NCBI RefSeq assembly: GCF_007827455.1 | Contig: NZ_VISM01000001.1 | Coordinates: forward strand, 2,705,501-2,769,500 | Reading direction: 5' to 3' | Origin: Lutibacter sp. Hel_I_33_5 | Lineage (GTDB): Bacteria > Bacteroidota > Bacteroidia > Flavobacteriales > Flavobacteriaceae | DNA length: 64,000 bases | Shown here: in pieces, positions 45,118 through 58,017 of the stretch | Numbering within the stretch: the stretch's first letter is position 1 | How the letters are laid out: the number at the start of each line of letters is the position of its first letter | Program-made: the position numbers and the translations under genes | Notes under the pieces: model-generated | What the model was told of the DNA's origin: nothing | The model's database searches: none | What the model saw: the letters and a program-made list of their open reading frames with translations, nothing else

Positions 45118-47508
45118 ATGAAAAAAATAATACTATTTTTTATGCTAACAATAACTATGAGTTCATTTGCTCAGTTAGCCAAAAGCGACTTACCTAAACC
45201 TGGAACTATCTCTGGTAAAGTTGTAGACGAAAAAACCAAAGAACCCTTACCGTATGTTAATATTGTTGTACGAGATATAGCAAAAAAAGTATTAACAGGA
45301 GGTATTACTAGTGAAAATGGAACTTTTAAAATTAAAGGAATTCCAGAAGGAAATAGTGTAGTAGAGGTACAATATATTGGATATGAAAAATTTACGCGTA
45401 ACATAAGTGTAACTAATAAAAGACGTTCAATTAATTTAGGAACTATCGGATTAAAAGAGGATAGTGCACAATTAGATGAAGTTGTTGTACGTGCAGAAAC
45501 ATCTACAGTTGTACAGAAAGTTGACAGAAAAGTAATTAATGTTGGAAAGGATTTAACATCTGCTGGTGCAACTGCATCAGAATTACTAAATAACGTACAA
45601 TCTGTTAGTGTAGATAGTCAAACTGGAAATATTAGTTTACGTGGAAACGAGAATGTAAGAGTTCTTGTAGACGGTAAACCAACCAATATGCCTGCTGCAC
45701 AATTATTAAAACAAATTCCTTCAACATCTATAAAAAGCGTTGAGTTAATTACAAATCCATCAGCAAAATACAATCCAGAAGGAATGAGTGGAATTATAAA
45801 TATTGTATTAAATAAAAGTGCAAATTTAGGATTCAATGGTTCTTTAAATACCGGAATAGAAGCTGGACATTATGTGCGTTATAACGCATCTACAAATATG
45901 AATTACAAAACCGGAAAAGTTAACTTTTTTGGTAATTATGGATATAGATCTGGAGAACGATATAATTTTGGCTATGTAAATAGACCTGGTGTTAATAATC
46001 AAGATTTTATTTTTGTAAATGATAATACATCACATTTATTAAAATTAGGAGCCGATATTTACTTAGATAAAAAGAATACTTTGTCTTTTTATACAACGCA
46101 GAATATGAATGATAATTTTGCAGATGGAACAGCAAAAATTACATTAGCTGGCGGAACTCTTTTCGAAAATTCACCTAACTCTCAAAAATCTGAGACTAAA
46201 AATCAAACATACAATGCTAACTTTAAGCATGATTTTGATGATAAAGGTCATAATATTGAAGTAGAAGCTACTTATTCTAAAAATAATACTCCAACTTTTC
46301 TTGAAAATCAATTTCAATTAGCAACTCAGCCAAATTATATTAATGATATCACTAATGATAGAACGAATACATTAATTAATTTAGATTATACCAATCCGGT
46401 ATCTAAGAACGGAAAATTAGAGTTGGGACTTGAGTATCGAGTTAATAAAACAGAGAATACGAATAACACTACTCAACTAGGTTTTAATAATTCATCATTT
46501 ACTTATGATAGAGATATCTATTCTGGATATGTAAATTATGGGCATAAATTTGGAAAAATAACCATGCAATTAGGTGCGAGGTTAGAACAATATGAAATTG
46601 AAGGTAACTTTAGCCAAGTTTCTTTACCTTCTGCAAAAGTTACTGATGAGATATTTTCTATATATCCATCTGCATTCTTTACTTTTAATCCATCTGATAA
46701 AAATCAATTTCAGTTAAGTTATAGTAAAAGAGTAGATAGACCAAGTATAGGACAAGTTAATCCTATTAGAGAATGGAGTACACCATTAATTACTTCTGTT
46801 GGTAATGAAAACCTTGTTCCACAGTTTACAAATTCTTTTGAGGTTAATTATACTAGAAAAATAAAAGGCGGTTCGTTAACTTTCGGAACTTTTTATAGAA
46901 ATATTAATGATGCAATTAACAGAGTTACTTCTAGAGATCTATCAGATCCAAATAGACAAATTCTATCATTCGCAAATTTTGATGATACCAGTTCTTATGG
47001 TTTAGAGTTTTCTACCAATTATAAAGTTGCAAAATGGTGGAGAGCCAATGCAAGTTTAGATTTTTACTCTCAAAAGCAATTTGGTGTAACAGATTTAAGT
47101 AATCCAAATACTCCAAGAATAGAAGTTCAAAACGAAGTGTTTAATGCAAGATTAAGCAATAGTTTTACGGTAACTAAAAAGTTGCGTATGCAATTATTTG
47201 CTATGTATAGAGGTGCTAATAAAGATATTCAATGGGAAACACAGCCAATGAAAATGATAAATCTAGGTGCTAGTTATTCTGTTTTTAAAAGAAAGGGAAC
47301 TATTTCATTTAGAGTTAATGATATTTTTAATTCCATGCGATTTGCTTTTAATTCAAACAGTCCTTTTGTACAAAATGGACAGTTTAAATGGGAAAGTAGA
47401 ACAGCTTTCTTAGGATTTAATTACAGATTTGGTGGTGGGAAGAATAAAGCAAAAAGAAGAAGAAATAGAGATAATAACGAGAAGCAAGGTGGTGGAGGTT
47501 TCTTCTAA
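45118..47508 (+). CDS. Outer membrane beta-barrel family protein (TonB-receptor-like)
   Basis: 796 residues. The signal peptide ends near SSFAQ. A CarboxypepD_reg domain (ISGKVVDEKTKEPLPYVNIV, about 30-115) is followed by a plug-like domain (about 120-240, NISLRGNENVRVLVDGKPTN) and a C-terminal barrel of the OMP_b-brl_3 type. The tail is Lys/Arg-rich and then glycine-rich (KAKRRRNRDNNEKQGGGGFF), which is unusual after the last strand. Such proteins are TonB-dependent receptor relatives in Bacteroidetes without a known ligand. The gene stands alone with a strong terminator. Confidence 0.92.
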   Translation: MKKIILFFMLTITMSSFAQLAKSDLPKPGTISGKVVDEKTKEPLPYVNIVVRDIAKKVLTGGITSENGTFKIKGIPEGNSVVEVQYIGYEKFTRNISVTNKRRSINLGTIGLKEDSAQLDEVVVRAETSTVVQKVDRKVINVGKDLTSAGATASELLNNVQSVSVDSQTGNISLRGNENVRVLVDGKPTNMPAAQLLKQIPSTSIKSVELITNPSAKYNPEGMSGIINIVLNKSANLGFNGSLNTGIEAGHYVRYNASTNMNYKTGKVNFFGNYGYRSGERYNFGYVNRPGVNNQDFIFVNDNTSHLLKLGADIYLDKKNTLSFYTTQNMNDNFADGTAKITLAGGTLFENSPNSQKSETKNQTYNANFKHDFDDKGHNIEVEATYSKNNTPTFLENQFQLATQPNYINDITNDRTNTLINLDYTNPVSKNGKLELGLEYRVNKTENTNNTTQLGFNNSSFTYDRDIYSGYVNYGHKFGKITMQLGARLEQYEIEGNFSQVSLPSAKVTDEIFSIYPSAFFTFNPSDKNQFQLSYSKRVDRPSIGQVNPIREWSTPLITSVGNENLVPQFTNSFEVNYTRKIKGGSLTFGTFYRNINDAINRVTSRDLSDPNRQILSFANFDDTSSYGLEFSTNYKVAKWWRANASLDFYSQKQFGVTDLSNPNTPRIEVQNEVFNARLSNSFTVTKKLRMQLFAMYRGANKDIQWETQPMKMINLGASYSVFKRKGTISFRVNDIFNSMRFAFNSNSPFVQNGQFKWESRTAFLGFNYRFGGGKNKAKRRRNRDNNEKQGGGGFF

Positions 47509-47585: not shown

Positions 47586-48608
47586 TTAAATCTTAGCAGA
47601 TTTTACAGTCTTAATAATTCTTCCAGCAATCTTATATGGATCACCATTAGAAGCTGGTCTTCTATCTTCTAACCAACCTTTCCAGCCTTTCTCTACTGCG
47701 ATAATTGGAATTCTAATTGAAGCTCCTCTATCAGAAACTCCCCAAGAGAAATCTGTAATAGCAGCAGTTTCATGATCACCAGTTAAACGTTGATCGTTAA
47801 ATTCACCGTAAACAGCAATATGTTCTTTTACAACTGGTCTAAATGCTTCACAAATTTTTGCATACACATCTTTATCACCACAAGTTCTTAACGTTGTGTT
47901 AGAGAAGTTAGCGTGCATACCAGAACCATTCCAATCCATATCTTTACCTAATGGTTTTGGGTGATAATCGATATAGTAACCATGTCTTTCTGTTAATCTA
48001 TCTAATAAGTAACGAGCAATCCAAATTTCATCACCTGCTTTTTTAGCTCCTTTAGCAAACAATTGGAATTCCCATTGTCCAGAAGCAACTTCTTGATTAA
48101 TTCCTTCAAAGTTTAAACCAGCATCAATACATAAATCTGCATGTTCTTCAACTAAGTCTCTACCATGTGTGTTTTTACCACCAACAGAACAGTAATACAT
48201 TCCTTGTGGAGCTGGATAACCACCAATAGGGAATCCTAAAGGTAATTGTGTTTTAGTATCCATGATAAAATATTCTTGCTCAAAACCAAACCAGAAATCA
48301 TTATCATCATCTTCAATTGTAGATCTTCCGTTAGAAACGTGAGGCGTACCATCAGCATTTAAAACTTCAGTCATTACTAAATAACCATTCCTTCTTGAAG
48401 GATCTGGATAAATAGCAACTGGCTTAAGTAAACAGTCAGAAGCACCACCAGAAGCTTGTCTTGTAGACGATCCATCAAAAGACCAATTATCTAATTCTTC
48501 AATTGTTCCTTGAAAATTTTCATGTTCCTCAACTTTGGTTTTAGATCTCATATTCTGAGTTGGAAAATATCCATCTAACCAAATGTATTCTAATTTAATT
48601 TTAGCCAT
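47586..48608 (-). CDS. glnA: Glutamine synthetase, type II (short form)
   Basis: 340 residues from the ATG at 48608; an upstream in-frame start at 48659 would add a non-matching segment that crosses the promoter box. Glutamine synthetase joins ammonia and glutamate with ATP. The short length and motifs (LEYIWLDGYFPTQNMRSKTK, WNGSGMHANFSN, GVSDRGASIRIPI) mark the GSII (eukaryote-like) branch rather than the bacterial GSI of about 470 residues. The active-site glutamates appear in FGFEQEYFI. It has its own promoter and is monocistronic. Confidence 0.93.
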   Translation of the reverse strand: MAKIKLEYIWLDGYFPTQNMRSKTKVEEHENFQGTIEELDNWSFDGSSTRQASGGASDCLLKPVAIYPDPSRRNGYLVMTEVLNADGTPHVSNGRSTIEDDDNDFWFGFEQEYFIMDTKTQLPLGFPIGGYPAPQGMYYCSVGGKNTHGRDLVEEHADLCIDAGLNFEGINQEVASGQWEFQLFAKGAKKAGDEIWIARYLLDRLTERHGYYIDYHPKPLGKDMDWNGSGMHANFSNTTLRTCGDKDVYAKICEAFRPVVKEHIAVYGEFNDQRLTGDHETAAITDFSWGVSDRGASIRIPIIAVEKGWKGWLEDRRPASNGDPYKIAGRIIKTVKSAKI

Positions 48609-48639
48609 AATAAATAATTGTGTTGATGTTAATAAAGTA

Positions 48640-48647
48640 CAAATATA
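48640..48647 (-). promoter_or_regulatory. -7 box (TAtaTTTG) for glnA
   Basis: On the minus strand TATATTTG lies about 31 nt before the chosen glnA start at 48608 and downstream of the rejected start at 48659. Confidence 0.55.
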
Positions 48648-48783
48648 GAGCAAAAACACATTTTTATTAAGGAAAATGTAAAGAAAAGCGCATTTTTATG
48701 AATTTATTATTATGACTTTAAATTTTTAAGGATGTGGTAATTTCTCATTTTAAATTTTGTCTAAATGACAATAAATAGAATAT

Positions 48784-51633
48784 CTATTCACCAGAACCAT
48801 TAAGTACAAATGGAGCCCACATATACACAGATTTAAAATTCTCTCCAACTTCACCTTTTAACATGGCTCTTTTAGCATTTGTTAAAGCAAGAGAAGCTGG
48901 TTGATTTTTTAAATACATATTTTGATACATTAATGTCATTAAAATCATGGTTCCTGCATCATTAACTGGCCATAAACTTAATAAGGTATTATTAGCACCT
49001 GCAACTAATAAAGAAGAATTTAATCCATTAATACCTTCTCCGCCATATATTTTACCTAGTGCTGTTTGACATGCACTTAAAACTACCATATCTGCATTTA
49101 AGTTTAGTTTTTCAATTTCATATGCTAATAAAAAGGTGTCTTCTCCTTTATTTTTTTCACTTTCATTTTGTGTCATCATTACACCAGAAAGTGCTGGATT
49201 ATTATCTGAAGCAAAACCATGAGTTGCAATATGTACCCATTTATAATTAGCTAACTCTCCTGTGGTATTCATTTTTTTGATTCCAGATTCAGTCATGTAA
49301 TTGCCAGTTAAAACTGTAGCATTTGTAATTATCTTTTTTAAATTATTTACTTCACGTAAAGTTCCGGGTAAATAGTTTGCTCCACCAAAACCAAAAGCAC
49401 TTAATTCTTCAGAAAGGTTTTTTGTATTGGTTTTAATTTTACTAGATAAATCTTTTTTTACAGCATAATAGTCTTTTTTGCTTCTAGATTTCCCACCTTT
49501 ATTAGCAGGAGGGTAGTAGGTTGCTCCTCCAAAGGCTAATAAACTTTTTCTTGAAGATGAATATTTTCTTTCCTTTAATTTAGACCAAACAGTAACAGAA
49601 GGTATATAAGTGATGTTATAGTTTTCTAATAAATATTTATTGCTGTTATTTTTAAAAGCTTCAAAAGGAAGGTAATTTAATTCTCCTTCTCCACTAATAA
49701 TCAAGTTCTTTTTTCCGTTAATATCATTAGCAATAGGAGCAACTAAAAAAGAATACCAATGTTTTAAAAATTGATCTAAATAAGCTGCATTTTTTTTATC
49801 AGCAGTTTCCATTAACTGCCTGGTTAATGAAGTGAACACGTTAAAATCATCAGCAGAAAAAGCTTGTTTTTTGTCTTTGTATTTTATGAGTTGACCATCA
49901 ATAATATCTTCATCCATTTTTATTAGATGATTATTAATAGTGTTAGGTTTTTTCTTTACAAGATTTACAAATCTTTTTTTCAGCTTTAACCAAGTATCTA
50001 TTGGAAAGTTATATTTTATTGTTTTATTGTTTTTTGTTATTACAGTTGCAACCATTTCACCTGGTCCTAATAAAGAATAATAGATTAAAGCATCATCGTT
50101 AGTTAATTTATTTTGAACGTCAATTATATTTTTTCCAAATGCTTTTTGATGCAGTTTTTTACTTAATAATCTACTTCTGTTTGCATCTTGTACTTTAAAT
50201 AATTCATGTACATTTCTAGTGTCTTTATAGGTCATAATTAAACCGCTGTATGCACTAGTATATTCATTCATTAAACCAAGTTGAGTGTCTGGGTCTGAAT
50301 TTTCTAAATGCTTTTCTGATAAATTAATGGCTTTAGAAAACATTTTTGAAGCATTTGTATAATCTTTAGACATATAAGACATGAAGCCTATATTATTTGC
50401 TAATAATTGAGCGCCACTTACGTCTTTTAATTCTTCTTTTATATCAATCGCTTTTAAAGCAACTTCTTTGGCTTTTTGCTTCTGGTTTTTTTGCCACAAT
50501 GAAATGGAATAATTACCAGAAATATCTGAAATTAAATTTTTATTATTTAATTCAACTGATTGATTATATGCTTTTTGTGTGTATTGGAAAGCTTTATTTC
50601 TGTCAGTTGATATAACACTATTTGAGTAATATTGACCTAAAGAATTATTTGCTAACGCCTGAAAATACGTATTGTTTTTTTCTTTCCCTTTTCTTAAGAG
50701 TGAATTGGCAGTAGCAACAATATCTTTTTTCTTTTGTAAACCTGTTAACGCTTTTAATTTATTATTTAAAAGAATTAATTCTAATTGATCTGTTTTAAAT
50801 TTTTTTAGAATTTGTAATCCTTTGTTAGCTTCATTTAACATGTTTTCATAATCATAACTATAATAACTATTATCTGCTAAATAACTATAAGCCTGAGCAA
50901 CTTGATATTGTAAATTTTCATTATTTCTTACTAATGGATTTTCAAGAAATTGATTGATTGCCTTTACTCCAAAATTGATTTTATTGTTATTATAAAATAT
51001 AACGCCTTTTAAAAATTTATAAACAGATAATGCTGTTTTTCCATAATTTCCTTTAGAAGCTAAATAGTTTTCAATTTCTTTTTCATTTGCATAATTTTTT
51101 CCTTTTTGCCAGTCTGAAAAACTAGTAAATAATTTTTGAGCCTTTAGTATTGCTTGAGAATTATTTGTATTAGCAGATTTTGCATACTCTTTTAGTAAAG
51201 TACAGTCTTTACCTGTTTCTTTTTCTATCCAATTGATATCATCTAATGTTGTAGTTAAAGCATTTGGATAAGAAATTAAAGCGTAACTAAAATCCATTTG
51301 TTTTTTAGAAGCTTCTAATTCTCCATTTAAAAAAGAGATATAGGATAAAATTGCAAAATTAGAAGCATCTATATAATTAATGTTTAGTGATGTTCTTGCG
51401 TTTGTTGTAGCAGATACCACATCATTTTCTAAACAATTTACAAATGCTAGGTACAAATAACCCGCATAATTTTCTGGCGCTTTCTTTATTAATGAATTTG
51501 CGGTTACTTTAAGATTTGGAATGTTCTTATTTTTTACAGCTTCTGCAGCTTTTGTAAAAAGTGTGTTTAAATCTTGAGCGTTTAATGACATTGTAAAAAA
51601 TATCACTATTAAAATAATTATTTTTTGTTTCAT
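48784..51633 (-). CDS. Secreted TPR-CHAT protein (caspase-like peptidase domain)
   Basis: 949 residues from the ATG at 51633; a start at 51666 would precede the signal peptide. The signal peptide ends at MSLNAQ. Residues about 20-480 are TPR-like helical repeats (for example YFQALANNSLGQYYSNS, GAQLLANNIGFMSYMSKDYT). A linker of about 130 residues leads to a C-terminal CHAT domain (about 620-949). Both catalytic residues of the CHAT caspase-like fold are present: His805 in WVHIATHGFA and Cys855 in VVLSACQTALG. CHAT peptidases cut protein partners, as in TPR-CHAT/separase-like proteins. Export to the periplasm or surface is unusual compared with cytoplasmic CHAT effectors. It is the last gene of the four-gene operon. 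Confidence 0.9.
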   Translation of the reverse strand: MKQKIIILIVIFFTMSLNAQDLNTLFTKAAEAVKNKNIPNLKVTANSLIKKAPENYAGYLYLAFVNCLENDVVSATTNARTSLNINYIDASNFAILSYISFLNGELEASKKQMDFSYALISYPNALTTTLDDINWIEKETGKDCTLLKEYAKSANTNNSQAILKAQKLFTSFSDWQKGKNYANEKEIENYLASKGNYGKTALSVYKFLKGVIFYNNNKINFGVKAINQFLENPLVRNNENLQYQVAQAYSYLADNSYYSYDYENMLNEANKGLQILKKFKTDQLELILLNNKLKALTGLQKKKDIVATANSLLRKGKEKNNTYFQALANNSLGQYYSNSVISTDRNKAFQYTQKAYNQSVELNNKNLISDISGNYSISLWQKNQKQKAKEVALKAIDIKEELKDVSGAQLLANNIGFMSYMSKDYTNASKMFSKAINLSEKHLENSDPDTQLGLMNEYTSAYSGLIMTYKDTRNVHELFKVQDANRSRLLSKKLHQKAFGKNIIDVQNKLTNDDALIYYSLLGPGEMVATVITKNNKTIKYNFPIDTWLKLKKRFVNLVKKKPNTINNHLIKMDEDIIDGQLIKYKDKKQAFSADDFNVFTSLTRQLMETADKKNAAYLDQFLKHWYSFLVAPIANDINGKKNLIISGEGELNYLPFEAFKNNSNKYLLENYNITYIPSVTVWSKLKERKYSSSRKSLLAFGGATYYPPANKGGKSRSKKDYYAVKKDLSSKIKTNTKNLSEELSAFGFGGANYLPGTLREVNNLKKIITNATVLTGNYMTESGIKKMNTTGELANYKWVHIATHGFASDNNPALSGVMMTQNESEKNKGEDTFLLAYEIEKLNLNADMVVLSACQTALGKIYGGEGINGLNSSLLVAGANNTLLSLWPVNDAGTMILMTLMYQNMYLKNQPASLALTNAKRAMLKGEVGENFKSVYMWAPFVLNGSGE

Positions 51634-51672
51634 AATATTTAAATCATTTAAAAATAATATTTGCATGGTCTA

Positions 51673-53391
51673 TCATTTTAATTTTAAACATTTAGACATA
51701 TTTACTTTGTAGTTTCTATTTCTGTTCGATTTTATAGTAAAAATATCATCTTTCATAGACCAAGAAAATGCTACTGAAGCACCTAGATATCCAGAACTTT
51801 TATCACTAGAATTATTTTTATTAGTTTTAGTTAAATGTGTGTCTCTACCCAAAAACATTACTTTTTCATGCTGGTATTTCCCATTAATTATACTTACATA
51901 ATATTCTGTATGATTCCATCTCATAAGATAATCTCCTCTAAATTTCTGATCGCTCTTAGTTGATTTAATGAAAACTACTTTTCTGTCTAAATCACAAGAA
52001 GAGATGATAGCAACACCTTCTGGAGTTCCATTATATGAACCTACATTTCCTAACTTATATTCTGTAGCATTCATATCTGTCATTTCAGCAGATAACGTTC
52101 TTAAACTTCCAGATTCTGGAAAAATAGACAAGCCATCTATGGTTTTTCTAATTACTTTGTTAGTAGCTTTAGATGAATAGTTCTTGGAATTGTTGTTATT
52201 AGAAGAATTGTTTTTAGTACTTTTATTATTAACAATTGAATAATTAATGTCTGATTTCCCTAACGATTGTATGTAAACACCATTATCCCAAATACCACAT
52301 TGAGGTTTTGAGTTTTTGAAATAATAAGCACCTAACCCATGTAACTTATCTTCTTTCCATTCTCCAATATATACATCTCCATTACTGTAACTATAACTTC
52401 CAGTTCCAGTTTTTTTGTTGTCTTTCCATTCTCCAATATAGCTGGTTCCACTTTTAAAAGTTAATTTTCCAAAACCATCTCTTTTGTCGTTCTTAAAATT
52501 CCCAATATAAATCGCATCATTTTCATATTTATAGGCTACAATTCCGTTTTTACAATCGCCAGCTAAACATGCTTTGTTCTCATTAAAAGATAAGATAGTT
52601 TTCTCGTTGTTTTTATCTGTAATTTCAAGTTCTTTTTTGCTTTCATTATAATTCACTTGTAGATTTTTATTTAAATCCTTATAACTAAAATCACCTTTTA
52701 ATCCTTCATTATAAACAAAATTTTTTGAACTTGAATAACTTCCAACGTAGTTAGAAAAGGTGCTTTTTCCATTATTGTAAGCTATTTTTATTGGACCATT
52801 TGGTACATCATTTTTAAAAAATCCTTTTGCTTTTCCGCCATCAGAATTGGTAACTTCTTTGTATTCAAAACTGTTCAATTTTTCAATTAAACTTTGTGTT
52901 TTAAAACTATCTTCATGAAGTTTTATTGGGTTTAGTGTATAAGGAACAACATTTTTAAAATGCTCAAGTAATAACGTGTTTTGTTCAAATTGCCCTCTAT
53001 AAATTACATCAATTTTGTTCGTATCATATTTGTAAATTGAACTCTTTTTTATATAAACACCATTTTCATTATAAACATGCACGCCACCGCTTTTAGTTTT
53101 AAACCAAAAACCATTTTCAGTATTTATGTTGGCTAACTCTGCGTTATACTCTTTGTCATTTTCTTTATTTTTAAAGTCTTTACAAATGTAGAGTTGTTTT
53201 TTTGCTGGATAATAAACTAGTAAATCATTATTCATGTAACCGTTTTTACAATAATTTCCGATTTTACTATCGTTTAATAAAAAGTTGAAATTTTTCCCAT
53301 TATTTATTTTTTTAAAAGTGACTTTATCATTTTGGGAGTTAGATAAAGTAGAAAATAAAAGAAAGAAAAGTAGTATAATTTTATATTTCAT
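51673..53391 (-). CDS. Exported MORN-repeat protein
   Basis: 572 residues. The signal peptide ends near LSNSQ. The N-terminal half is beta-rich, with an ornithine-poor repeat-like stretch (GGKAKGFFKNDVPNGPIKIA). MORN repeats lie at about 285-375, seen as NDAIYIGNFKNDKRDGFGKL, TSYIGEWKDNKKTGTGSYSY and GDVYIGEWKEDKLHGLGAYY. An Asn/Ser-rich linker (about 390-415) leads to a C-terminal domain of about 150 residues with no family I recognise. MORN repeats bind lipid or protein surfaces; in Bacteroidetes they often accompany caspase-like peptidases. It lies 39 nt upstream of the CHAT gene in the same operon. Confidence 0.88.
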   Translation of the reverse strand: MKYKIILLFFLLFSTLSNSQNDKVTFKKINNGKNFNFLLNDSKIGNYCKNGYMNNDLLVYYPAKKQLYICKDFKNKENDKEYNAELANINTENGFWFKTKSGGVHVYNENGVYIKKSSIYKYDTNKIDVIYRGQFEQNTLLLEHFKNVVPYTLNPIKLHEDSFKTQSLIEKLNSFEYKEVTNSDGGKAKGFFKNDVPNGPIKIAYNNGKSTFSNYVGSYSSSKNFVYNEGLKGDFSYKDLNKNLQVNYNESKKELEITDKNNEKTILSFNENKACLAGDCKNGIVAYKYENDAIYIGNFKNDKRDGFGKLTFKSGTSYIGEWKDNKKTGTGSYSYSNGDVYIGEWKEDKLHGLGAYYFKNSKPQCGIWDNGVYIQSLGKSDINYSIVNNKSTKNNSSNNNNSKNYSSKATNKVIRKTIDGLSIFPESGSLRTLSAEMTDMNATEYKLGNVGSYNGTPEGVAIISSCDLDRKVVFIKSTKSDQKFRGDYLMRWNHTEYYVSIINGKYQHEKVMFLGRDTHLTKTNKNNSSDKSSGYLGASVAFSWSMKDDIFTIKSNRNRNYKVNMSKCLKLK

Positions 53392-53404
53392 AATTTATTT
53401 TTAA

Positions 53405-55033
53405 TTATTTGATATATACTCTTATTTTATCAACTCTATAAAATTTTACGTTTTTATACGAATCTTGACGAAAATAAAATGTTAATTCCTGTTTACGACC
53501 ATCATAATAGTCATCCCATTTGTATATCATAAAACTAGAATAATCTTTATAAGGTTGCCCTAATTTTTTAATTACTTCCGCTCTAGTAGCATTATTAAAG
53601 AATTCTTCATATTTTTTTAATTTTTTATCTTGTTTTCTAATAAATCTTTTTTCGGCTTTAGTTTTTTCTCTAGAATATCTTTCTGGGGATTTATTAATGG
53701 TAACTTTAGGTTTTTCTATTTTATTTAATGCACCAATATTTTCTTTTTTGGCGTCATTCCATAAATTATCATACTTGATAATTAATTTATCTTGCTCTTT
53801 TTTAGAACGATACGTTTGTGTGATCTTTAAATCATCTACACTAACTTTTATACTATCTGGTACTTTTATATAAATAGTATTTCCAAAATCTTCTTTGATC
53901 AATTTGTTAACCACTTTATTATTTAAAATGAAATAGACATTATTTTCTATTTTTTTGATTCGTAAAGAATTGTTTTCATTTTCTTTTATAAGACTTGTTT
54001 TTTGCCATTCACTATGATTAGTCACTTTTTCATTTTTTTCAACTTTAGAAAACCAATATCCATTGTGTGCATATGCAAACTGTATTAAGTCTTCTTTATC
54101 TTTAATTAGTAAGCTAATTCCTTTATTTACTGTTCCAGACACTCTTTTTAAAGAAGTTGAAACATCAAAATCATGACTTGGATTCAATTTAATATCTGAC
54201 CAAGTTTGATAATCGTATTTAGACGTGTTAACAATTTCTAAAGCGCTATTTGCAATTTCAAAAGTGTAATCCTTGGTTTTTCCTAAAGTAAAATTAAATT
54301 CGTTATCATTAAAAGAGGTGTATAATTCTTTGGTAGGTGTATTTTCTATGATAACATTTTTTTCTACTTTTTTTAAGGCTGTTATTTTTTGATATAAATC
54401 TTTAGCATATTGCTTTTTATCACTTTTACTCATCTTTAAATATCCAATTTTTAAATATTTAAAAACTACTTCAGAGTGTTGACAAATAGATAAACCAACT
54501 TGCTTAAATGACAAATCCATATTAGATTTTACTAAAACAGGTGTATTATTAATTAGGAAGAAAACTTTGTTATCAATTTTTTGAATAGTCAGTGTATTGA
54601 ATTCACCTGTCTTTATAAAATCAATTTTAGACCAACCAGTTTTTTCAATATAGTTTTCATTTTTTAGCTGTTTAAATTTCCAATAACCATCATCAGAAAT
54701 TCCAAAATCATTAAAATTTTTGTCATCATCACTTTTATTAAAAAACAGAGTTAGTAATTCATCCTTTCCAGAAATTTTCTTTACAGAGGTTTCTATAATA
54801 AAATCTTTCTTAAGATTAATATCTGTGTTTAGATATGCCCACTTGTCACTATCTGTTTTGTTGTTAAAGTATAATTTATTGTCTTTAATTTCAGAACTAT
54901 AATCTTTGTCATTAAATAGTTCCCAAGAATTGCTGTTATCTTTAAAGTTTTCTTGTAAAATAGTTTCTATATTAACTTGTGCAGATATTATATTTATGAA
55001 TAAAACGAAGGGTATTAAAATAGGTTTTTTCAT
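53405..55033 (-). CDS. Exported protein with two laminin-G-like modules and BamE/SmpA-like tail, copy 2
   Basis: 542 residues. The signal peptide ends near NIISAQ. Two similar beta-sandwich modules follow, at about 25-195 and 240-405; each has a D-F-D/I-x-x-T-S strand, a NGYWF/DGYWKF strand, a N-x-L-x-I-x-K-I-x-N/D-x-V-x-F strand and a lid strand. They look like concanavalin/laminin-G or DUF1080-type folds. A coiled, Lys-rich stretch (about 410-475) precedes a C-terminal domain with ATRAEVIKKLGQPYKDYSSF, reminiscent of the SmpA/OmlA (BamE) fold. It is close in sequence to the neighbouring copy 1, and 13 nt separate it from the MORN gene. Confidence 0.85.
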   Translation of the reverse strand: MKKPILIPFVLFINIISAQVNIETILQENFKDNSNSWELFNDKDYSSEIKDNKLYFNNKTDSDKWAYLNTDINLKKDFIIETSVKKISGKDELLTLFFNKSDDDKNFNDFGISDDGYWKFKQLKNENYIEKTGWSKIDFIKTGEFNTLTIQKIDNKVFFLINNTPVLVKSNMDLSFKQVGLSICQHSEVVFKYLKIGYLKMSKSDKKQYAKDLYQKITALKKVEKNVIIENTPTKELYTSFNDNEFNFTLGKTKDYTFEIANSALEIVNTSKYDYQTWSDIKLNPSHDFDVSTSLKRVSGTVNKGISLLIKDKEDLIQFAYAHNGYWFSKVEKNEKVTNHSEWQKTSLIKENENNSLRIKKIENNVYFILNNKVVNKLIKEDFGNTIYIKVPDSIKVSVDDLKITQTYRSKKEQDKLIIKYDNLWNDAKKENIGALNKIEKPKVTINKSPERYSREKTKAEKRFIRKQDKKLKKYEEFFNNATRAEVIKKLGQPYKDYSSFMIYKWDDYYDGRKQELTFYFRQDSYKNVKFYRVDKIRVYIK

Positions 55034-55036
55034 TTT

Positions 55037-56638
55037 TTAATTTTTATAGTTGATTACTGCGTAGTTAACCATTTTGTACTTTATTTTCCCTTTTTGGTAG
55101 GGGATATAAAAGAATTCTAAATCTTGTGGTCTTCCATCATAAGAATCGTTATACCGATAAGAAATTGAAAAACTATTTGATTTATAAGGCTGTCCTAGTT
55201 TTTTTATAACATCTGATAAAGGGGCATTTTTAAACATTTTATTGTATTTTTTTCTTGCTTTATCCTGTTTTTTTTTAAATTTCTCCTTTGCCTTATCATG
55301 AACAATTTGTTGCTTTTCAGTTTTTCCTAAAGCGCCAACATTTTCGGTTTTAGCTTTGTCCCATAAATTGTCATATTGTGCAATTAATTTATCTTGCTCT
55401 TTTTTAGAACGGTACGTTTGAGTAAGTTTTAAATCATCTACACGAATTTTTATACTATCGGGTGCTTTTATATAAATAGTATTTCCAAATCCTTTTTCAA
55501 CTACTTTGTTTACCACTTTATTATTTAAAATGAAATAGACAGTATTTTGAATTTTCTTAATTCTTAAAGAATTATTTTCTCTTTCTTTTACAAGGTTGGT
55601 TTTTTGCCACTTACTAAATTTTGTTGATTTATCATTTTTTTGAACATCAGAAAACCAGTATCCATTTTGTGCATATGCAAGCTGTAATTTGTTTATTTTA
55701 TCTTTAATTACTAAACTAATTCCTTTATTTATTGTGCCAGACACTCTTTTTAAAGAAGTTGATATATCAAAATCTTGCATTGGATTTATTTTAATTTTGG
55801 ACCAAGTATGATAATAGGATTTTGAAGTATTATTAATTTCTAAAGCACTATCTACAATTTTATAGGTGTAATCTTTTGTTTCATTTAAGTAAAAACCAAA
55901 TTCATTCTTATCAAAAGAAGTATGTAATTCTTTAGTAATTGTGTCTTCAATTAATACGTTTTTACCTGTAGTTTTAGCGTCTATTAATTTTTGATATAAT
56001 TGGTTAGCATATTTTTCTTTATCATTTTTACTCATCTTTAGATATCCAATTTTTAGATATTTAAAAGCTACTTCAGACTTGCTACAAACTGATAGCCCAA
56101 CCTGATTAAATGATAAATCCATATTAGTTTTTACTAAAATTGGTGTATTATTAATTAAAAAGAAAACCTTCTCATTAATTTTTTGAATTGTTAGTGTATT
56201 ATATTCACCAGCGTTTATATAATCAATTTTATACCAGTTTGTATCTCCAATAATGCTACTGTTGTTTTTTTGTTTAAACTTCCAATAACCATTATCGGAT
56301 ATTCCAAAGTCATTATAATTTTTAGCATCATCAGTTTTATTAAATATTAGTGATAACAGATTGTTATTCGTTCCCGAAACTAATTTTAATGATGTTTCTA
56401 TGACAAAATCTTTTTTAAGATTGATTTTAGTATTTAGGTACGCCCATTTGTTTTTTTCAGACCTATTATTAAAGTATAATTGATTATCCTTTATTTCACA
56501 GCTATAGTTTTTATTATTAAACAGTTTCCAAGAATTGCTATTATCTTTAAAATCTTCTTGTATAATAGTTTCTATATTAACTTGTGCAGATACTATATTT
56601 ATAAATAAAAAGAAGAGTATTAAAATAGATTTTTTCAT
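55037..56638 (-). CDS. Exported protein with two laminin-G-like modules and BamE/SmpA-like tail, copy 1
   Basis: 533 residues from the ATG at 56638, chosen because it matches the start of copy 2 (MKKSILILFFLFINIVSAQ here). The two modules, coiled middle and BamE/SmpA-like end (APLSDVIKKLGQPYKSNSFS) follow in the same order as in copy 2. An in-frame ATG at 56698 would prepend a second signal-like segment (MKRLLFVFFIFFAAFSFTKK), and the promoter box lies just upstream of that ATG, so the longer start is not excluded. It is the first gene of the operon; copy 2 starts 3 nt after its stop. It binds an unknown ligand, perhaps glycan, by analogy with the fold. Confidence 0.82.
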   Translation of the reverse strand: MKKSILILFFLFINIVSAQVNIETIIQEDFKDNSNSWKLFNNKNYSCEIKDNQLYFNNRSEKNKWAYLNTKINLKKDFVIETSLKLVSGTNNNLLSLIFNKTDDAKNYNDFGISDNGYWKFKQKNNSSIIGDTNWYKIDYINAGEYNTLTIQKINEKVFFLINNTPILVKTNMDLSFNQVGLSVCSKSEVAFKYLKIGYLKMSKNDKEKYANQLYQKLIDAKTTGKNVLIEDTITKELHTSFDKNEFGFYLNETKDYTYKIVDSALEINNTSKSYYHTWSKIKINPMQDFDISTSLKRVSGTINKGISLVIKDKINKLQLAYAQNGYWFSDVQKNDKSTKFSKWQKTNLVKERENNSLRIKKIQNTVYFILNNKVVNKVVEKGFGNTIYIKAPDSIKIRVDDLKLTQTYRSKKEQDKLIAQYDNLWDKAKTENVGALGKTEKQQIVHDKAKEKFKKKQDKARKKYNKMFKNAPLSDVIKKLGQPYKSNSFSISYRYNDSYDGRPQDLEFFYIPYQKGKIKYKMVNYAVINYKN

Positions 56639-56722
56639 TTTTTTAGTAAATGAAAAAGCAGCGAAAAAAATGAAGAAAACGAATAAAAGCCGTTTCATAA
56701 GTTGAATTTTTTGGTTACAAAA

Positions 56723-56730
56723 CAAAAATA
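56723..56730 (-). promoter_or_regulatory. -7 box (TAttTTTG) for the CHAT operon
   Basis: On the minus strand TATTTTTG lies about 25 nt before the ATG at 56698 and 85 nt before the one at 56638. It is divergent from the purM promoter about 80 nt away. Confidence 0.5.
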
Positions 56731-56811
56731 AAAAAAATATGATGTTGATAAAATACGTCATTTGCCGTATTTTTAAATGAAGATAAATTATTGTTTTTAT
56801 CCTCAAAAAAT

Positions 56812-56819
56812 TACCTTTG
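56812..56819 (+). promoter_or_regulatory. Promoter (TTG-N18-TAccTTTG) for purM
   Basis: A TTG at 56791-56793 and the box TACCTTTG with 18-nt spacing form a good Bacteroidetes promoter, ending 19 nt before the purM ATG. Confidence 0.7.
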
Positions 56820-56838
56820 CAACCTTACAATACACAAC

Positions 56839-58017
56839 ATGAGTCAAGAAGTTTCTAAACGATACGCACAACGCGGAGTTTCTGCATCTAAAGAAGATGT
56901 ACATAATGCTATTAAGAATATAGATAAAGGATTATTCCCAAAAGCGTTTTGTAAAATTGTTCCCGATTATTTAACAAATGATGAAGATTATTGTTTGATA
57001 ATGCATGCAGATGGCGCTGGAACTAAATCTTCTTTGGCATATATGTATTGGAAAGAAACGGGTGATGTTTCTGTATGGAAAGGTATTGCGCAAGATGCGT
57101 TAATTATGAATATTGATGATTTGCTTTGTGTTGGAGCAACCGATAATATACTACTTTCTTCCACTATTGGACGTAATAAAAGTAAGATTCCTGGAGAAGT
57201 ATTGTCAGCAATTATAAACGGAACAGAAGAACTTATTGAAGATCTAAAAGGTTTTGGTGTTACGATACATTCAACTGGAGGAGAAACCGCAGATGTTGGT
57301 GATTTAGTACGTACAATTATTGTAGACTCTACAGTTACAGCACGTATGAAACGTACGGATGTAATTGATAATGCGAATATAAAAGCAGGAGATGTAATTG
57401 TTGGTTTAGAATCTTTTGGACAAGCAACTTATGAAACTGAATATAATGGAGGAATGGGTTCTAATGGATTAACATCTGCAAGACACGATGTTTTTCATAA
57501 ATATTTAGCCGATAAATATCCAGAAAGTTTCGATGCTGCAGTTCCAGAAGAATTAGTCTATTCTGGAAATACTAAGTTAACAGATTTAGTAGAAAACTCT
57601 CCAATTGATGCTGGTAAATTAGTCTTGTCTCCAACAAGAACATATGCACCTATTATAAAAGAAATTTTATCGAAGTTCAGTTCTGATACTGTTCATGGAA
57701 TGATTCATTGTTCTGGTGGAGCGCAAACTAAAATTTTACACTTTGTAGATAATTTACATATTGTAAAAGATAATCTATTTCCAATTCCGCCTTTATTTAA
57801 ATTGATACAAGAACAATCTAAAACTGATTGGAAAGAAATGTATCAAGTTTTTAATTGCGGACACAGAATGGAAATTTATGTTGCTAAAGAAGTAGCTCAA
57901 GACATTATTGCAATTTCTAAATCCTTTAATGTTGATGCGAAAATAGTTGGTAGAGTTGAGGCTTCAACAACAAAAAAACTCACTATTAAAAGTGAGTTTG
58001 GTGTTTTTGAGTATTAA
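56839..58017 (+). CDS. purM: Phosphoribosylformylglycinamidine cyclo-ligase
   Basis: 392 residues from the ATG at 56839 (MSQEVSKRYAQRGVS); an upstream in-frame TTG at 56791 is the -33 element and was rejected. PurM closes the imidazole ring of the purine (FGAM to AIR) with ATP. Visible are HADGAGTKSSLAY, the metal/ATP-binding MNIDDLLCVGATDNILLSST, THSTGGETADV-like IHSTGGETADVGDLV, and FNCGHRMEIYV near the end. The form is longer than the E. coli enzyme, as usual in Bacteroidetes. The last codons (LTIKSEFGVFEY) double as the terminator of the converging lipoprotein gene. Confidence 0.94.
   Translation: MSQEVSKRYAQRGVSASKEDVHNAIKNIDKGLFPKAFCKIVPDYLTNDEDYCLIMHADGAGTKSSLAYMYWKETGDVSVWKGIAQDALIMNIDDLLCVGATDNILLSSTIGRNKSKIPGEVLSAIINGTEELIEDLKGFGVTIHSTGGETADVGDLVRTIIVDSTVTARMKRTDVIDNANIKAGDVIVGLESFGQATYETEYNGGMGSNGLTSARHDVFHKYLADKYPESFDAAVPEELVYSGNTKLTDLVENSPIDAGKLVLSPTRTYAPIIKEILSKFSSDTVHGMIHCSGGAQTKILHFVDNLHIVKDNLFPIPPLFKLIQEQSKTDWKEMYQVFNCGHRMEIYVAKEVAQDIIAISKSFNVDAKIVGRVEASTTKKLTIKSEFGVFEY
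57972..58001 (-). terminator. Intrinsic terminator encoded inside the 3' end of purM
   Basis: AAACTCACT and AGTGAGTTT pair around ATTAAA. On the minus strand the stem is followed by seven U, so it terminates the lipoprotein gene at 58019. It also encodes purM residues KKLTIKSEF. A 30-nt identical copy lies at 59559-59588. Confidence 0.75.

What the first reader, a model, noticed from the sequence alone, without database searches (positions are those of the whole stretch)
48784..56730. Four-gene operon of exported proteins ending in a TPR-CHAT peptidase: candidate undescribed system
The sequence shows four minus-strand genes with gaps of 3, 13 and 39 nt behind one promoter box: two paralogous two-module laminin-G-like/BamE-tail proteins, a MORN-repeat protein and a TPR-CHAT protein. 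All four begin with signal peptides. The CHAT domain keeps His805 and Cys855, so peptidase activity is expected from what is known of CHAT/caspase-like folds. Known TPR-CHAT effectors act in the cytoplasm; an exported one, with putative binding modules on separate chains, points to a periplasmic or cell-surface proteolytic or sensing system. The roles (binding module, MORN membrane contact, protease) are inference.
Basis: partly seen in the sequence, partly recalled or inferred. Interest (0 to 1): 0.78.

Follow-up and report, generated by a model that had tools for sequence, protein, structure and literature searches.

The report
Exported caspase-type protease with partner proteins
A marine bacterium carries a small gene cluster for a caspase-like protein-cutting enzyme that appears to be shipped out of the cell interior together with separate lectin-like and repeat proteins, which may be its sensors or regulators; relatives carry similar parts shuffled or fused, but what it senses and cuts is unknown.

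Summary
The four-gene block is real. Gaps are 3, 13 and 39 nt, all four N-termini fit the Bacteroidetes Q-rule for signal peptides, the last gene encodes a TPR-CHAT protein, and His805/Cys855 are kept in every relative aligned. The two paralogues each hold two jelly-roll modules (gene 1 modelled; CBM66/laminin-G-like fold). The BamE label of their tails was not confirmed, and the promoter box carries no weight.

The set is not fixed. It sits between AIR synthase and glutamine synthetase in 2 of 166 congeneric genomes; 15 of 15 other sites fetched lack it. The other carrier has one jelly-roll gene plus TPR-CHAT and no MORN gene. In four relatives at 44-48% identity the upstream partner is a TPR or an unassigned exported protein.

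What recurs is an exported binding or repeat protein linked to a protease: jelly-roll arrays fused to a caspase-like domain (31 of 38 congeners with the module), MORN-caspase, MORN-trypsin and jelly-roll-trypsin proteins. Outside the genus, however, the module mostly joins OmpA or PD40. Exported TPR-CHAT proteins look common in Bacteroidota, so export itself is not the novelty.

Best reading: a split-chain, partner-gated periplasmic protease. Cluster, export signals and dyad are shown; ligand, substrate and gating are inferred.

The parts
55037..56638 (-). gene 1: exported protein, two jelly-roll (laminin-G/CBM66-like) modules plus a small alpha-beta tail, 533 aa; signal peptide residues 1-18. 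An in-frame ATG at 56698 also exists; homologues support 56638
   Evidence: AF2 model pLDDT 82.7; fold matches; no Pfam hit over cut-off
56021..56572 (-). gene 1, jelly-roll module 1
   Evidence: module profile, alignment A3
55397..55936 (-). [not shown]
   Evidence: secondary structure; no usable profile hit
53405..55033 (-). gene 2: paralogue of gene 1 (67% identical), 542 aa, exported; modules at 54419-54967 and 53795-54334
   Evidence: sister of gene 1 with support 1.0 in the tree
51673..53391 (-). gene 3: exported MORN-repeat protein, 572 aa, signal peptide residues 1-19
   Evidence: one full-length homologue found, P0028 (63%)
52267..52581 (-). gene 3, stretch holding the MORN repeats (about residues 271-375, limits chosen by eye)
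51676..52146 (-). gene 3, C-terminal domain (residues 416-572), most conserved part between the two homologues (117 of 156 identical, against 157 of 251 in residues 20-270)
48784..51633 (-). gene 4: exported TPR-CHAT protein, 949 aa, signal peptide residues 1-19
50149..51576 (-). gene 4, TPR superhelix (about residues 20-495)
   Evidence: AF2 pLDDT 82-97 in blocks of residues 21-440; TPR profile matches below cut-off
48796..49764 (-). gene 4, CHAT domain (residues 624-946)
   Evidence: E 2.2e-58; poorly modelled
49219..49221 (-). His805 codon of the putative catalytic dyad
49069..49071 (-). Cys855 codon of the putative catalytic dyad
56723..56730 (-). TATTTTTG, possible Bacteroidetes -7 box; not more than chance
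56791..58017 (+). flank: AIR-synthase-like gene (purM family; name recalled, not family-scanned), one side of the insertion site
47586..48611 (-). flank: glutamine synthetase, other side of the insertion site

Best explanation
The locus encodes a split-chain, partner-gated protease that works outside the cytoplasm, most likely in the periplasm. The TPR-CHAT protein is the enzyme: a clan-CD (caspase/separase-like) cysteine peptidase held inactive until its TPR superhelix binds a partner. The partners are the exported proteins encoded upstream. The two jelly-roll proteins would recognise a glycan or protein ligand in the envelope, and the MORN protein would be an adaptor or second sensor. Ligand binding would reorganise the TPR-CHAT protein, as target RNA does in Craspase, and the CHAT domain would cut a periplasmic target, passing on an envelope signal or triggering damage. 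SHOWN by sequence or model: cluster, export signals, jelly-roll fold, helical TPR-type part plus CHAT domain, intact dyad, and the recurrent linkage of jelly-roll, MORN or TPR partners to CHAT, caspase or trypsin peptidases. INFERRED: that the four proteins form one complex, that the partner gates the enzyme, and what is sensed and what is cut.
For: Tight same-strand cluster with signal peptides on all four. Dyad in 21 of 21 CHAT proteins compared and 9 of 9 family rows. An exported or exported-looking partner gene lies directly upstream of this TPR-CHAT in 6 of 6 contexts read: window, G321 and the four relatives. In P0012 and P0015 a TPR partner is fused to the CHAT protein. Jelly-roll/CHAT pairs are indicated in three metagenome lineages by equal contig lengths (P0004/P0012, P0005/P0014, P0007/P0011); the last length is shared by the MORN homologue P0028. 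The jelly-roll module is linked to proteases in several architectures: on one chain with a caspase-like domain in 31 of 38 congeneric genomes with the module (found there by BLAST to L041 and L043; L043 matches Pfam C14 and Glucodextran_B, L041 Glucodextran_B, and an NCBIfam caspase model below its cut-off) and with Pfam C14 in G277 (L050); four-module proteins beside two TPR-CHAT genes in G364 and G391; with trypsin in L051, L052, L083 and L130. MORN repeats occur with caspase (7) and trypsin (2) domains among 77 hits (P0029 and P0041 checked). Regulators: response regulators directly behind CHAT in L076, L077, L079 and a TPR-histidine kinase upstream in L076, L079 (regulators of L076 and L077 and kinase of L076 Pfam-checked). 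Gating precedent: Craspase TPR-CHAT is autoinhibited until non-self RNA binds its partner complex (PMC9729208, passages seen).
Against: No activity, complex or substrate is shown. The partner set changes between relatives, so genes 2 and 3 may be dispensable; the MORN protein has no full-length match in 166 congeneric genomes besides its own, only partial, mostly repeat-region matches in 19 others, and most of its 77 database hits cover only the repeat part. The window operon has no regulator of its own, so a signalling output is borrowed from relatives; no response regulator was noticed beside CHAT in L078. Outside the genus the module is mostly not with proteases: of 52 proteins scanned 15 match OmpA, 14 PD40, 3 trypsin and 1 caspase, and the caspase (L050) and one trypsin (L051) carrier had been added by me, so the two surveys themselves gave 2 of 50 (L083, L130). 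The caspase loci whose neighbours I read share their surroundings, so they probably count as one event. In the blocks holding H805 and C855 the model has pLDDT 43 and 36, so dyad geometry is untested. In L079 the CHAT gene is broken by stops.
Confidence: 0.45

Rival explanations
1. An exported conflict (immune) system: the binding modules recognise phage adsorption or a competitor's product at the envelope, and the CHAT protease then kills or disables the cell.
For: Patchy presence, 2 of 166 congeneric genomes, at a site that lacks it in 15 of 15 others fetched and holds other inserts in some. Conflict systems pair protein- or carbohydrate-binding sensors with trypsin or caspase-type effectors, and some sensors are predicted outside the cytoplasm (PMC10907252, passages seen); the same effector choice is found here. 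The related caspase domains in L041 and L043 resemble NCBIfam caspase_w_EACC1, below its cut-off.
Against: No convincing PADLOC match for the four proteins (best E 0.026). No adapter, NTPase or mobile-element family over its cut-off among the eight operon and flank proteins scanned; the rest of the window was not scanned.
Confidence: 0.2
2. A periplasmic processing or nutrient-related peptidase: the jelly rolls bind a polysaccharide or glycoprotein during uptake, and the CHAT domain constitutively trims imported or envelope proteins without sensing.
For: Jelly-roll folds close to CBM66, GH43 C-terminal and GH16 folds; an outer-membrane-receptor-like gene (by eye) lies at 45118-47508 beyond GlnA; the genus has polysaccharide-degrading members (recalled).
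Against: No carbohydrate enzyme or receptor inside the operon; Craspase shows that a TPR-CHAT can be regulated; relatives carry regulators.
Confidence: 0.15
3. A scaffold or cell-division/envelope-shape factor like HetF, in which the CHAT fold matters for binding, not necessarily for cleavage.
For: HetF, a CHAT-TPR protein, is a membrane protein at midcell and interacts with FtsI (PMC8406250, passages seen).
Against: Dyad kept in 21 of 21 compared, which argues for catalysis; a match in only 2 of 166 congeners does not fit a division role.
Confidence: 0.1
4. Chance neighbours: unrelated exported accessory genes collected in an insertion hotspot.
For: The site holds other multi-gene inserts in L182 and L187; MORN gene and second paralogue are missing in G321.
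Confidence: 0.1

Closest known systems
TPR-CHAT of Craspase (Csx29), type III-E CRISPR
   Same: N-terminal TPR part, C-terminal CHAT domain, His-Cys dyad; enzyme acts with a separate partner (PMC9729208, passages seen)
   Different: Cytoplasmic (recalled) and RNA-guided; the operon mates here are exported proteins, not Cas proteins; the window protein has a signal peptide and no CHAT-domain sequence match in the PDB searches
HetF of Anabaena (CHAT/TPR membrane protein)
   Same: CHAT and TPR in one protein, membrane-linked (PMC8406250, passages seen)
   Different: HetF has the CHAT part N-terminal and one predicted transmembrane segment; the window protein is TPR then CHAT behind a signal peptide
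Bacterial metacaspases/orthocaspases with N-terminal helices or signal peptides and accessory modules
   Same: Clan-CD peptidase joined to binding or repeat modules; an extracellular place of some was already proposed (PMC3501461, passages seen)
   Different: There the modules are on the same chain; here they are on separate chains and the peptidase is CHAT
Jelly-roll-array caspase-like proteins of the same genus (e.g. L041 8106-12143, L043 8333-11212)
   Same: Same jelly-roll module family, exported-looking, caspase-like peptidase domain
   Different: Single chain, Glucodextran_B domain before the caspase-like domain, different genomic site; most have a papain-family gene next door
Sensor/peptidase conflict systems with carbohydrate- or protein-binding sensors
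   Same: Binding module plus trypsin or caspase-like effector (PMC10907252, passages seen)
   Different: No NTPase or adapter family over its cut-off among the operon and flank proteins scanned

Membership tests
CHAT peptidase domain (PF12770) | Profile match over the curated cut-off | tested here: met
   198.4 bits against cut-off 24
CHAT peptidase domain (PF12770) | His-Cys dyad | tested here: met
   H805 and C855 in 9 of 9 family rows and 21 of 21 wider rows
CHAT peptidase domain (PF12770) | Dyad in catalytic geometry | tested here: inconclusive
   model pLDDT 43 and 36 in the blocks holding H805 and C855
CHAT peptidase domain (PF12770) | Proteolytic activity | not testable with these tools
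   needs a bench assay
Craspase (type III-E CRISPR protease) | TPR-CHAT encoded with a Cas7-11 effector | tested here: inconclusive
   operon mates and the four flank proteins scanned are not Cas7-11; the rest of window and genome was not scanned for it
Known anti-phage defence system (PADLOC-DB 2.0.0) | Match of a component to a PADLOC model | tested here: not met
   four proteins scanned; two weak matches only, E 0.026 and 0.042; later systems not covered
BamE/SmpA-OmlA fold (tail of genes 1 and 2) | Profile or fold match of the tail | tested here: inconclusive
   no usable profile match; fold rows covered mainly residues 233-410
Laminin-G/concanavalin/CBM66-like jelly roll | Jelly-roll fold | tested here: met
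   [not shown]
CBM66 or other carbohydrate-binding module | Binds a glycan | not testable with these tools
   fold alone shows no function
T9SS cargo | C-terminal T9SS sorting domain | tested here: not met
   no T9SS C-terminal-domain family matched at E up to 1 in the four proteins (Pfam, NCBIfam; family names recalled)

The most novel reading that the evidence does not exclude
Bacteroidota use a modular class of periplasmic surveillance proteases in which exported recognition chains (jelly-roll, MORN, TPR) gate a peptidase (TPR-CHAT, C14 caspase or trypsin), either fused on one chain or, as in the window, split over an operon; an envelope counterpart of the cytoplasmic sensor-caspase systems.
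Probability: 0.3. Interest if true: 0.78.

Novelty: new variant of a known kind. Interest (0 to 1): 0.52.

Why it matters
TPR-CHAT proteins are known from a CRISPR-guided protease and from HetF. The sample here (14 of 20 CHAT proteins with a signal-peptide call) suggests that in Bacteroidota many work in the envelope. I saw no functional study of such an exported one in my searches: searches gave no paper, searches gave 1 and 3, and searches listed only the top 20 of 706 and 10 of 517; subscription papers are mostly not held. The split operon gives a testable case: purify four mature proteins and ask whether the upstream proteins switch the protease on. If so, partner-gated caspase-type proteolysis extends to the bacterial periplasm.

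Tried and rejected
Promoter evidence: the TAnnTTTG pattern is below chance expectation in the window, dropped. BamE tail: Pfam and a tail profile against solved structures gave nothing usable; kept only as an unconfirmed label. Homology between the MORN protein's C-terminal domain and that of the distant relatives' partner proteins (both hold a short '...SCD...' stretch): hhalign probability 0.6% and 1.0%, not supported. Dyad geometry by structure: CHAT model too poor, so no fold search was run with it. Solved CHAT relatives by sequence: none at E 0.01 with the single sequence; the profile search listed 34 chains, mostly TPR proteins, with no best stretch in the CHAT part. Plasmid carriage of this CHAT family: two plasmid matches only, covering 35-40% at 29-32% identity. 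Fixed four-gene system: contradicted by G321 and the four relatives. Protease linkage as the rule for this module: not so outside the genus, where OmpA and PD40 are the commonest Pfam partners. Rows dropped before that count: L086 (broken frame) and L090, L095, L108 (no frame passed); only matches whose locus was kept (30 per search at most) were looked at. Signal-peptide heuristic: mine, choosing the best start codon within 140 codons, so optimistic; with hydrophobicity 2.4 or more and a Q-rule site it of 20 sampled CHAT proteins and 57 of 144 long frames in the control loci, which include many exported genes. The 20 CHAT genes were picked by hand, one per genome, from the places listed, the window genome's second CHAT among them. 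My notebook gives 15 of 20 by a looser reading; 14 (heuristic) and 12 (C-terminal hydrophobic segment) are the counts borne out.
Full report
WHAT IS THERE. The window lies in a single-contig 3.10 Mb genome of a Polaribacter-like flavobacterium; the name is inferred from the closest named proteins (P0003, P0013, labelled Polaribacter haliotis). Four genes on the minus strand follow each other at 55037-56638, 53405-55033, 51673-53391 and 48784-51633 with gaps of 3, 13 and 39 nt. The products are two paralogues (67% identical), a MORN protein and a TPR-CHAT protein. All four N-termini look like signal peptides ending in S-Q or A-Q. The glutamine is invariant in the nine relatives of genes 1/2 and in the nine rows of CHAT alignment A4 (P0012 and P0015, which carry N-terminal extensions, the fragment P0019 and the broken L079 gene were left out). 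That is what the Bacteroidetes Q-rule predicts (PMC5837995; I saw the abstract and outline). None of the four matches a T9SS sorting domain at E up to 1, so the periplasm is the simplest location; no dedicated predictor was run.

DISTRIBUTION. The TPR-CHAT protein has a match at E 1e-30 in 2 of 166 genomes of the genus, the window's own and G321. In G321 it lies at the same site, between the AIR-synthase-like gene and glutamine synthetase genes, with one jelly-roll gene and no MORN gene. Of 25 sampled genomes 24 have the AIR-synthase-like gene, 22 of them besides the two carriers; I fetched 15 of these 22 sites, and in 15 of 15 neither gene is seen within 10 kb; some hold other inserts. A pattern-based scan of the GTDB species genomes gave four more relatives at 44-48% identity. 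In all four the gene directly upstream is an exported-looking protein of 489-510 aa; their C-terminal parts align (not tested statistically). TPRs are over the cut-off in L077 and weak in L076; L079 aligns with L076 and was not scanned; L078 has no Pfam match. L076, L077 and L079 have a response regulator directly downstream; L076 and L079 also have a TPR-histidine kinase upstream and MORN genes nearby (regulator, kinase and MORN gene of L076 and regulator of L077 Pfam-checked). In P0012 and P0015 a relative of the TPR partner is fused to the CHAT protein. Jelly-roll and CHAT clusters with identical longest-contig lengths (17062, 4769, 14985) indicate three more paired loci, the last also with the only full-length MORN homologue, P0028. 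That they share a contig is inferred. Against this, P0009 (contig 64256) has no CHAT hit of equal contig length, and P0015 (8082) and P0016 (5064) no jelly-roll hit; P0006 and P0008 lie on contigs too short to hold both genes. The MORN protein has only partial matches, mostly of the repeat region, in 19 congeneric genomes besides its own.

THE MODULE ELSEWHERE. The jelly-roll module was found in 38 of 166 genomes of the genus. I fetched a stretch from each of the 37 other than the window's own and read them with a module profile and BLAST queries. In 31 a chain holds the module (three to five copies where the chain is whole) and a caspase-like domain with its His and Cys motifs; the frame is broken in L045, and L148 and L053 are cut by contig ends. 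The caspase assignment rests on BLAST to L041 and L043: L043, a second locus of G350, matches Pfam C14 and Glucodextran_B; L041 matches Glucodextran_B but not C14 at E 0.1, and an NCBIfam caspase model below its cut-off. 3 genomes have a four-module protein without caspase, in two of them (L046, L057) convergent to two CHAT genes (TPR and CHAT Pfam-checked in L046), while the third contig (L047) ends there. 1 has the module with a trypsin domain behind a lipoprotein-like start (L052); 1 is a fragment (L156); and G321 has the pair described. In 29 of 29 caspase loci where the upstream side is visible, a papain-family gene (by BLAST to the L041 protein, which matches Peptidase_C1 and DUF4384) lies directly upstream; L043 has none. 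The loci whose neighbours I read share their surroundings, so they probably count as one event. Outside the genus, of 52 module-bearing proteins scanned, 15 match OmpA, 14 PD40, 3 trypsin and 1 caspase; L050 (caspase) and L051 (trypsin) had been added by me, so the order and phylum surveys gave 2 of 50 with a protease, L083 and L130. So the module is a general exported module, with proteases as one recurrent partner. MORN repeats likewise occur with caspase domains (7 of 77 hits carry PF00656, the query counted among the 77) and trypsin domains (2 of 77) by the precomputed Pfam column; P0029 and P0041 were confirmed.

EXPORT OF CHAT PROTEINS. In 118 genomes of the phylum 60 hold a CHAT match. 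Of 20 genes picked by hand, 20 match CHAT and at least 18 TPR, 14 pass my signal-peptide heuristic with a Q-rule site, and 12 show a C-terminal hydrophobic segment; in the control 57 of 144 long frames pass. The window genome's second CHAT (L176) has both, with a TPR gene and a sigma-factor-like gene convergent to it. Thus exported TPR-CHAT proteins look common in this phylum. A Bacteroides fragilis study notes a CHAT protein predicted to be transmembrane (PMC11854122, passages seen), and HetF is a membrane CHAT-TPR protein (PMC8406250, passages seen).

MECHANISM. The best-supported model is a partner-gated periplasmic protease. Shown are the cluster, export signals, the jelly-roll fold, the helical TPR-type part, dyad conservation and the recurrent linkage of such partners to clan-CD or trypsin peptidases. 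Inferred are complex formation, gating by partner or ligand (by analogy with Craspase, PMC9729208, passages seen), the ligand and the substrate. Neighbouring two-component genes in relatives suggest signalling; the patchy, insert-like distribution leaves room for an immune role. I give the model 0.45.

NOVELTY. TPR-CHAT, metacaspases with accessory modules and possible export (PMC3501461, passages seen) and sensor-peptidase conflict systems (PMC10907252, passages seen) are known. The split-chain exported arrangement with jelly-roll and MORN partners is a new variant. The finding is interesting mainly as an entry to a little-studied class of envelope CHAT and caspase proteins, not as an isolated new system.

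Noticed in passing
L041 4589-12143 and equivalents in 31 congeneric genomes: Conserved locus: a transglutaminase-like DUF3857 gene in 15 of the fetched stretches, then a papain-family gene (29 of 29 where visible), then the jelly-roll-array/caspase-like gene; an ECF sigma factor and an anti-sigma gene follow in 13. A two-protease exported module that deserves its own study.
   Followed up: partly
G000:C1:1740939-1741724 (L002, L176): The window genome's second CHAT protein has a signal peptide and a C-terminal hydrophobic segment, next to a TPR gene and a sigma-factor-like gene on the other strand.
   Followed up: partly
L076, L077, L079: Distant relatives of the TPR-CHAT gene lie in operon-like blocks with an exported-looking partner and a LuxR-type response regulator; L076 and L079 also have a TPR-histidine kinase.
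   Followed up: partly
L182, L187 and other sites: The AIR-synthase/glutamine-synthetase junction looks like an insertion hotspot, with multi-gene inserts of exported-looking proteins in L182 and L187.
   Followed up: no
window 47586-48784: A 727-aa glutamine-synthetase-like gene (type III by recall) stands at this junction in G321 and in 15 of 15 other sites read, with GlnA beside it in 14 of the 15; it is not at the junction in the window. The whole genome was not searched for it.
   Followed up: no
L050 5910-7541: In another genus (G277) a one-module jelly-roll/Glucodextran_B/caspase gene lies about 7 kb from relatives of the same glutamine synthetase and exchanger genes that flank the operon in G321.
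   Followed up: no
window 53408-53689: The C-terminal tail of gene 2 resembles that of P0009 more than that of its sister gene 1 by eye, which hints at recombination or gene conversion in the tail.
   Followed up: no
L113-L128, L087: In other Bacteroidota the same jelly-roll module often stands at the N-terminus of proteins of about 700 aa with PD40 and OmpA domains (15 OmpA and 14 PD40 among 52).
   Followed up: partly
L129 1-1998, L130 439-1917: Two further partners of the module: a TPR array before it (L129, where the module itself scores as 3-keto-disaccharide hydrolase PF06439) and a trypsin domain before it (L130).
   Followed up: no
window 51676-52146: The MORN protein's C-terminal domain is its most conserved part against P0028 but matches no family; a short similarity to the C-terminal part of the distant partners is not significant.
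   Followed up: partly
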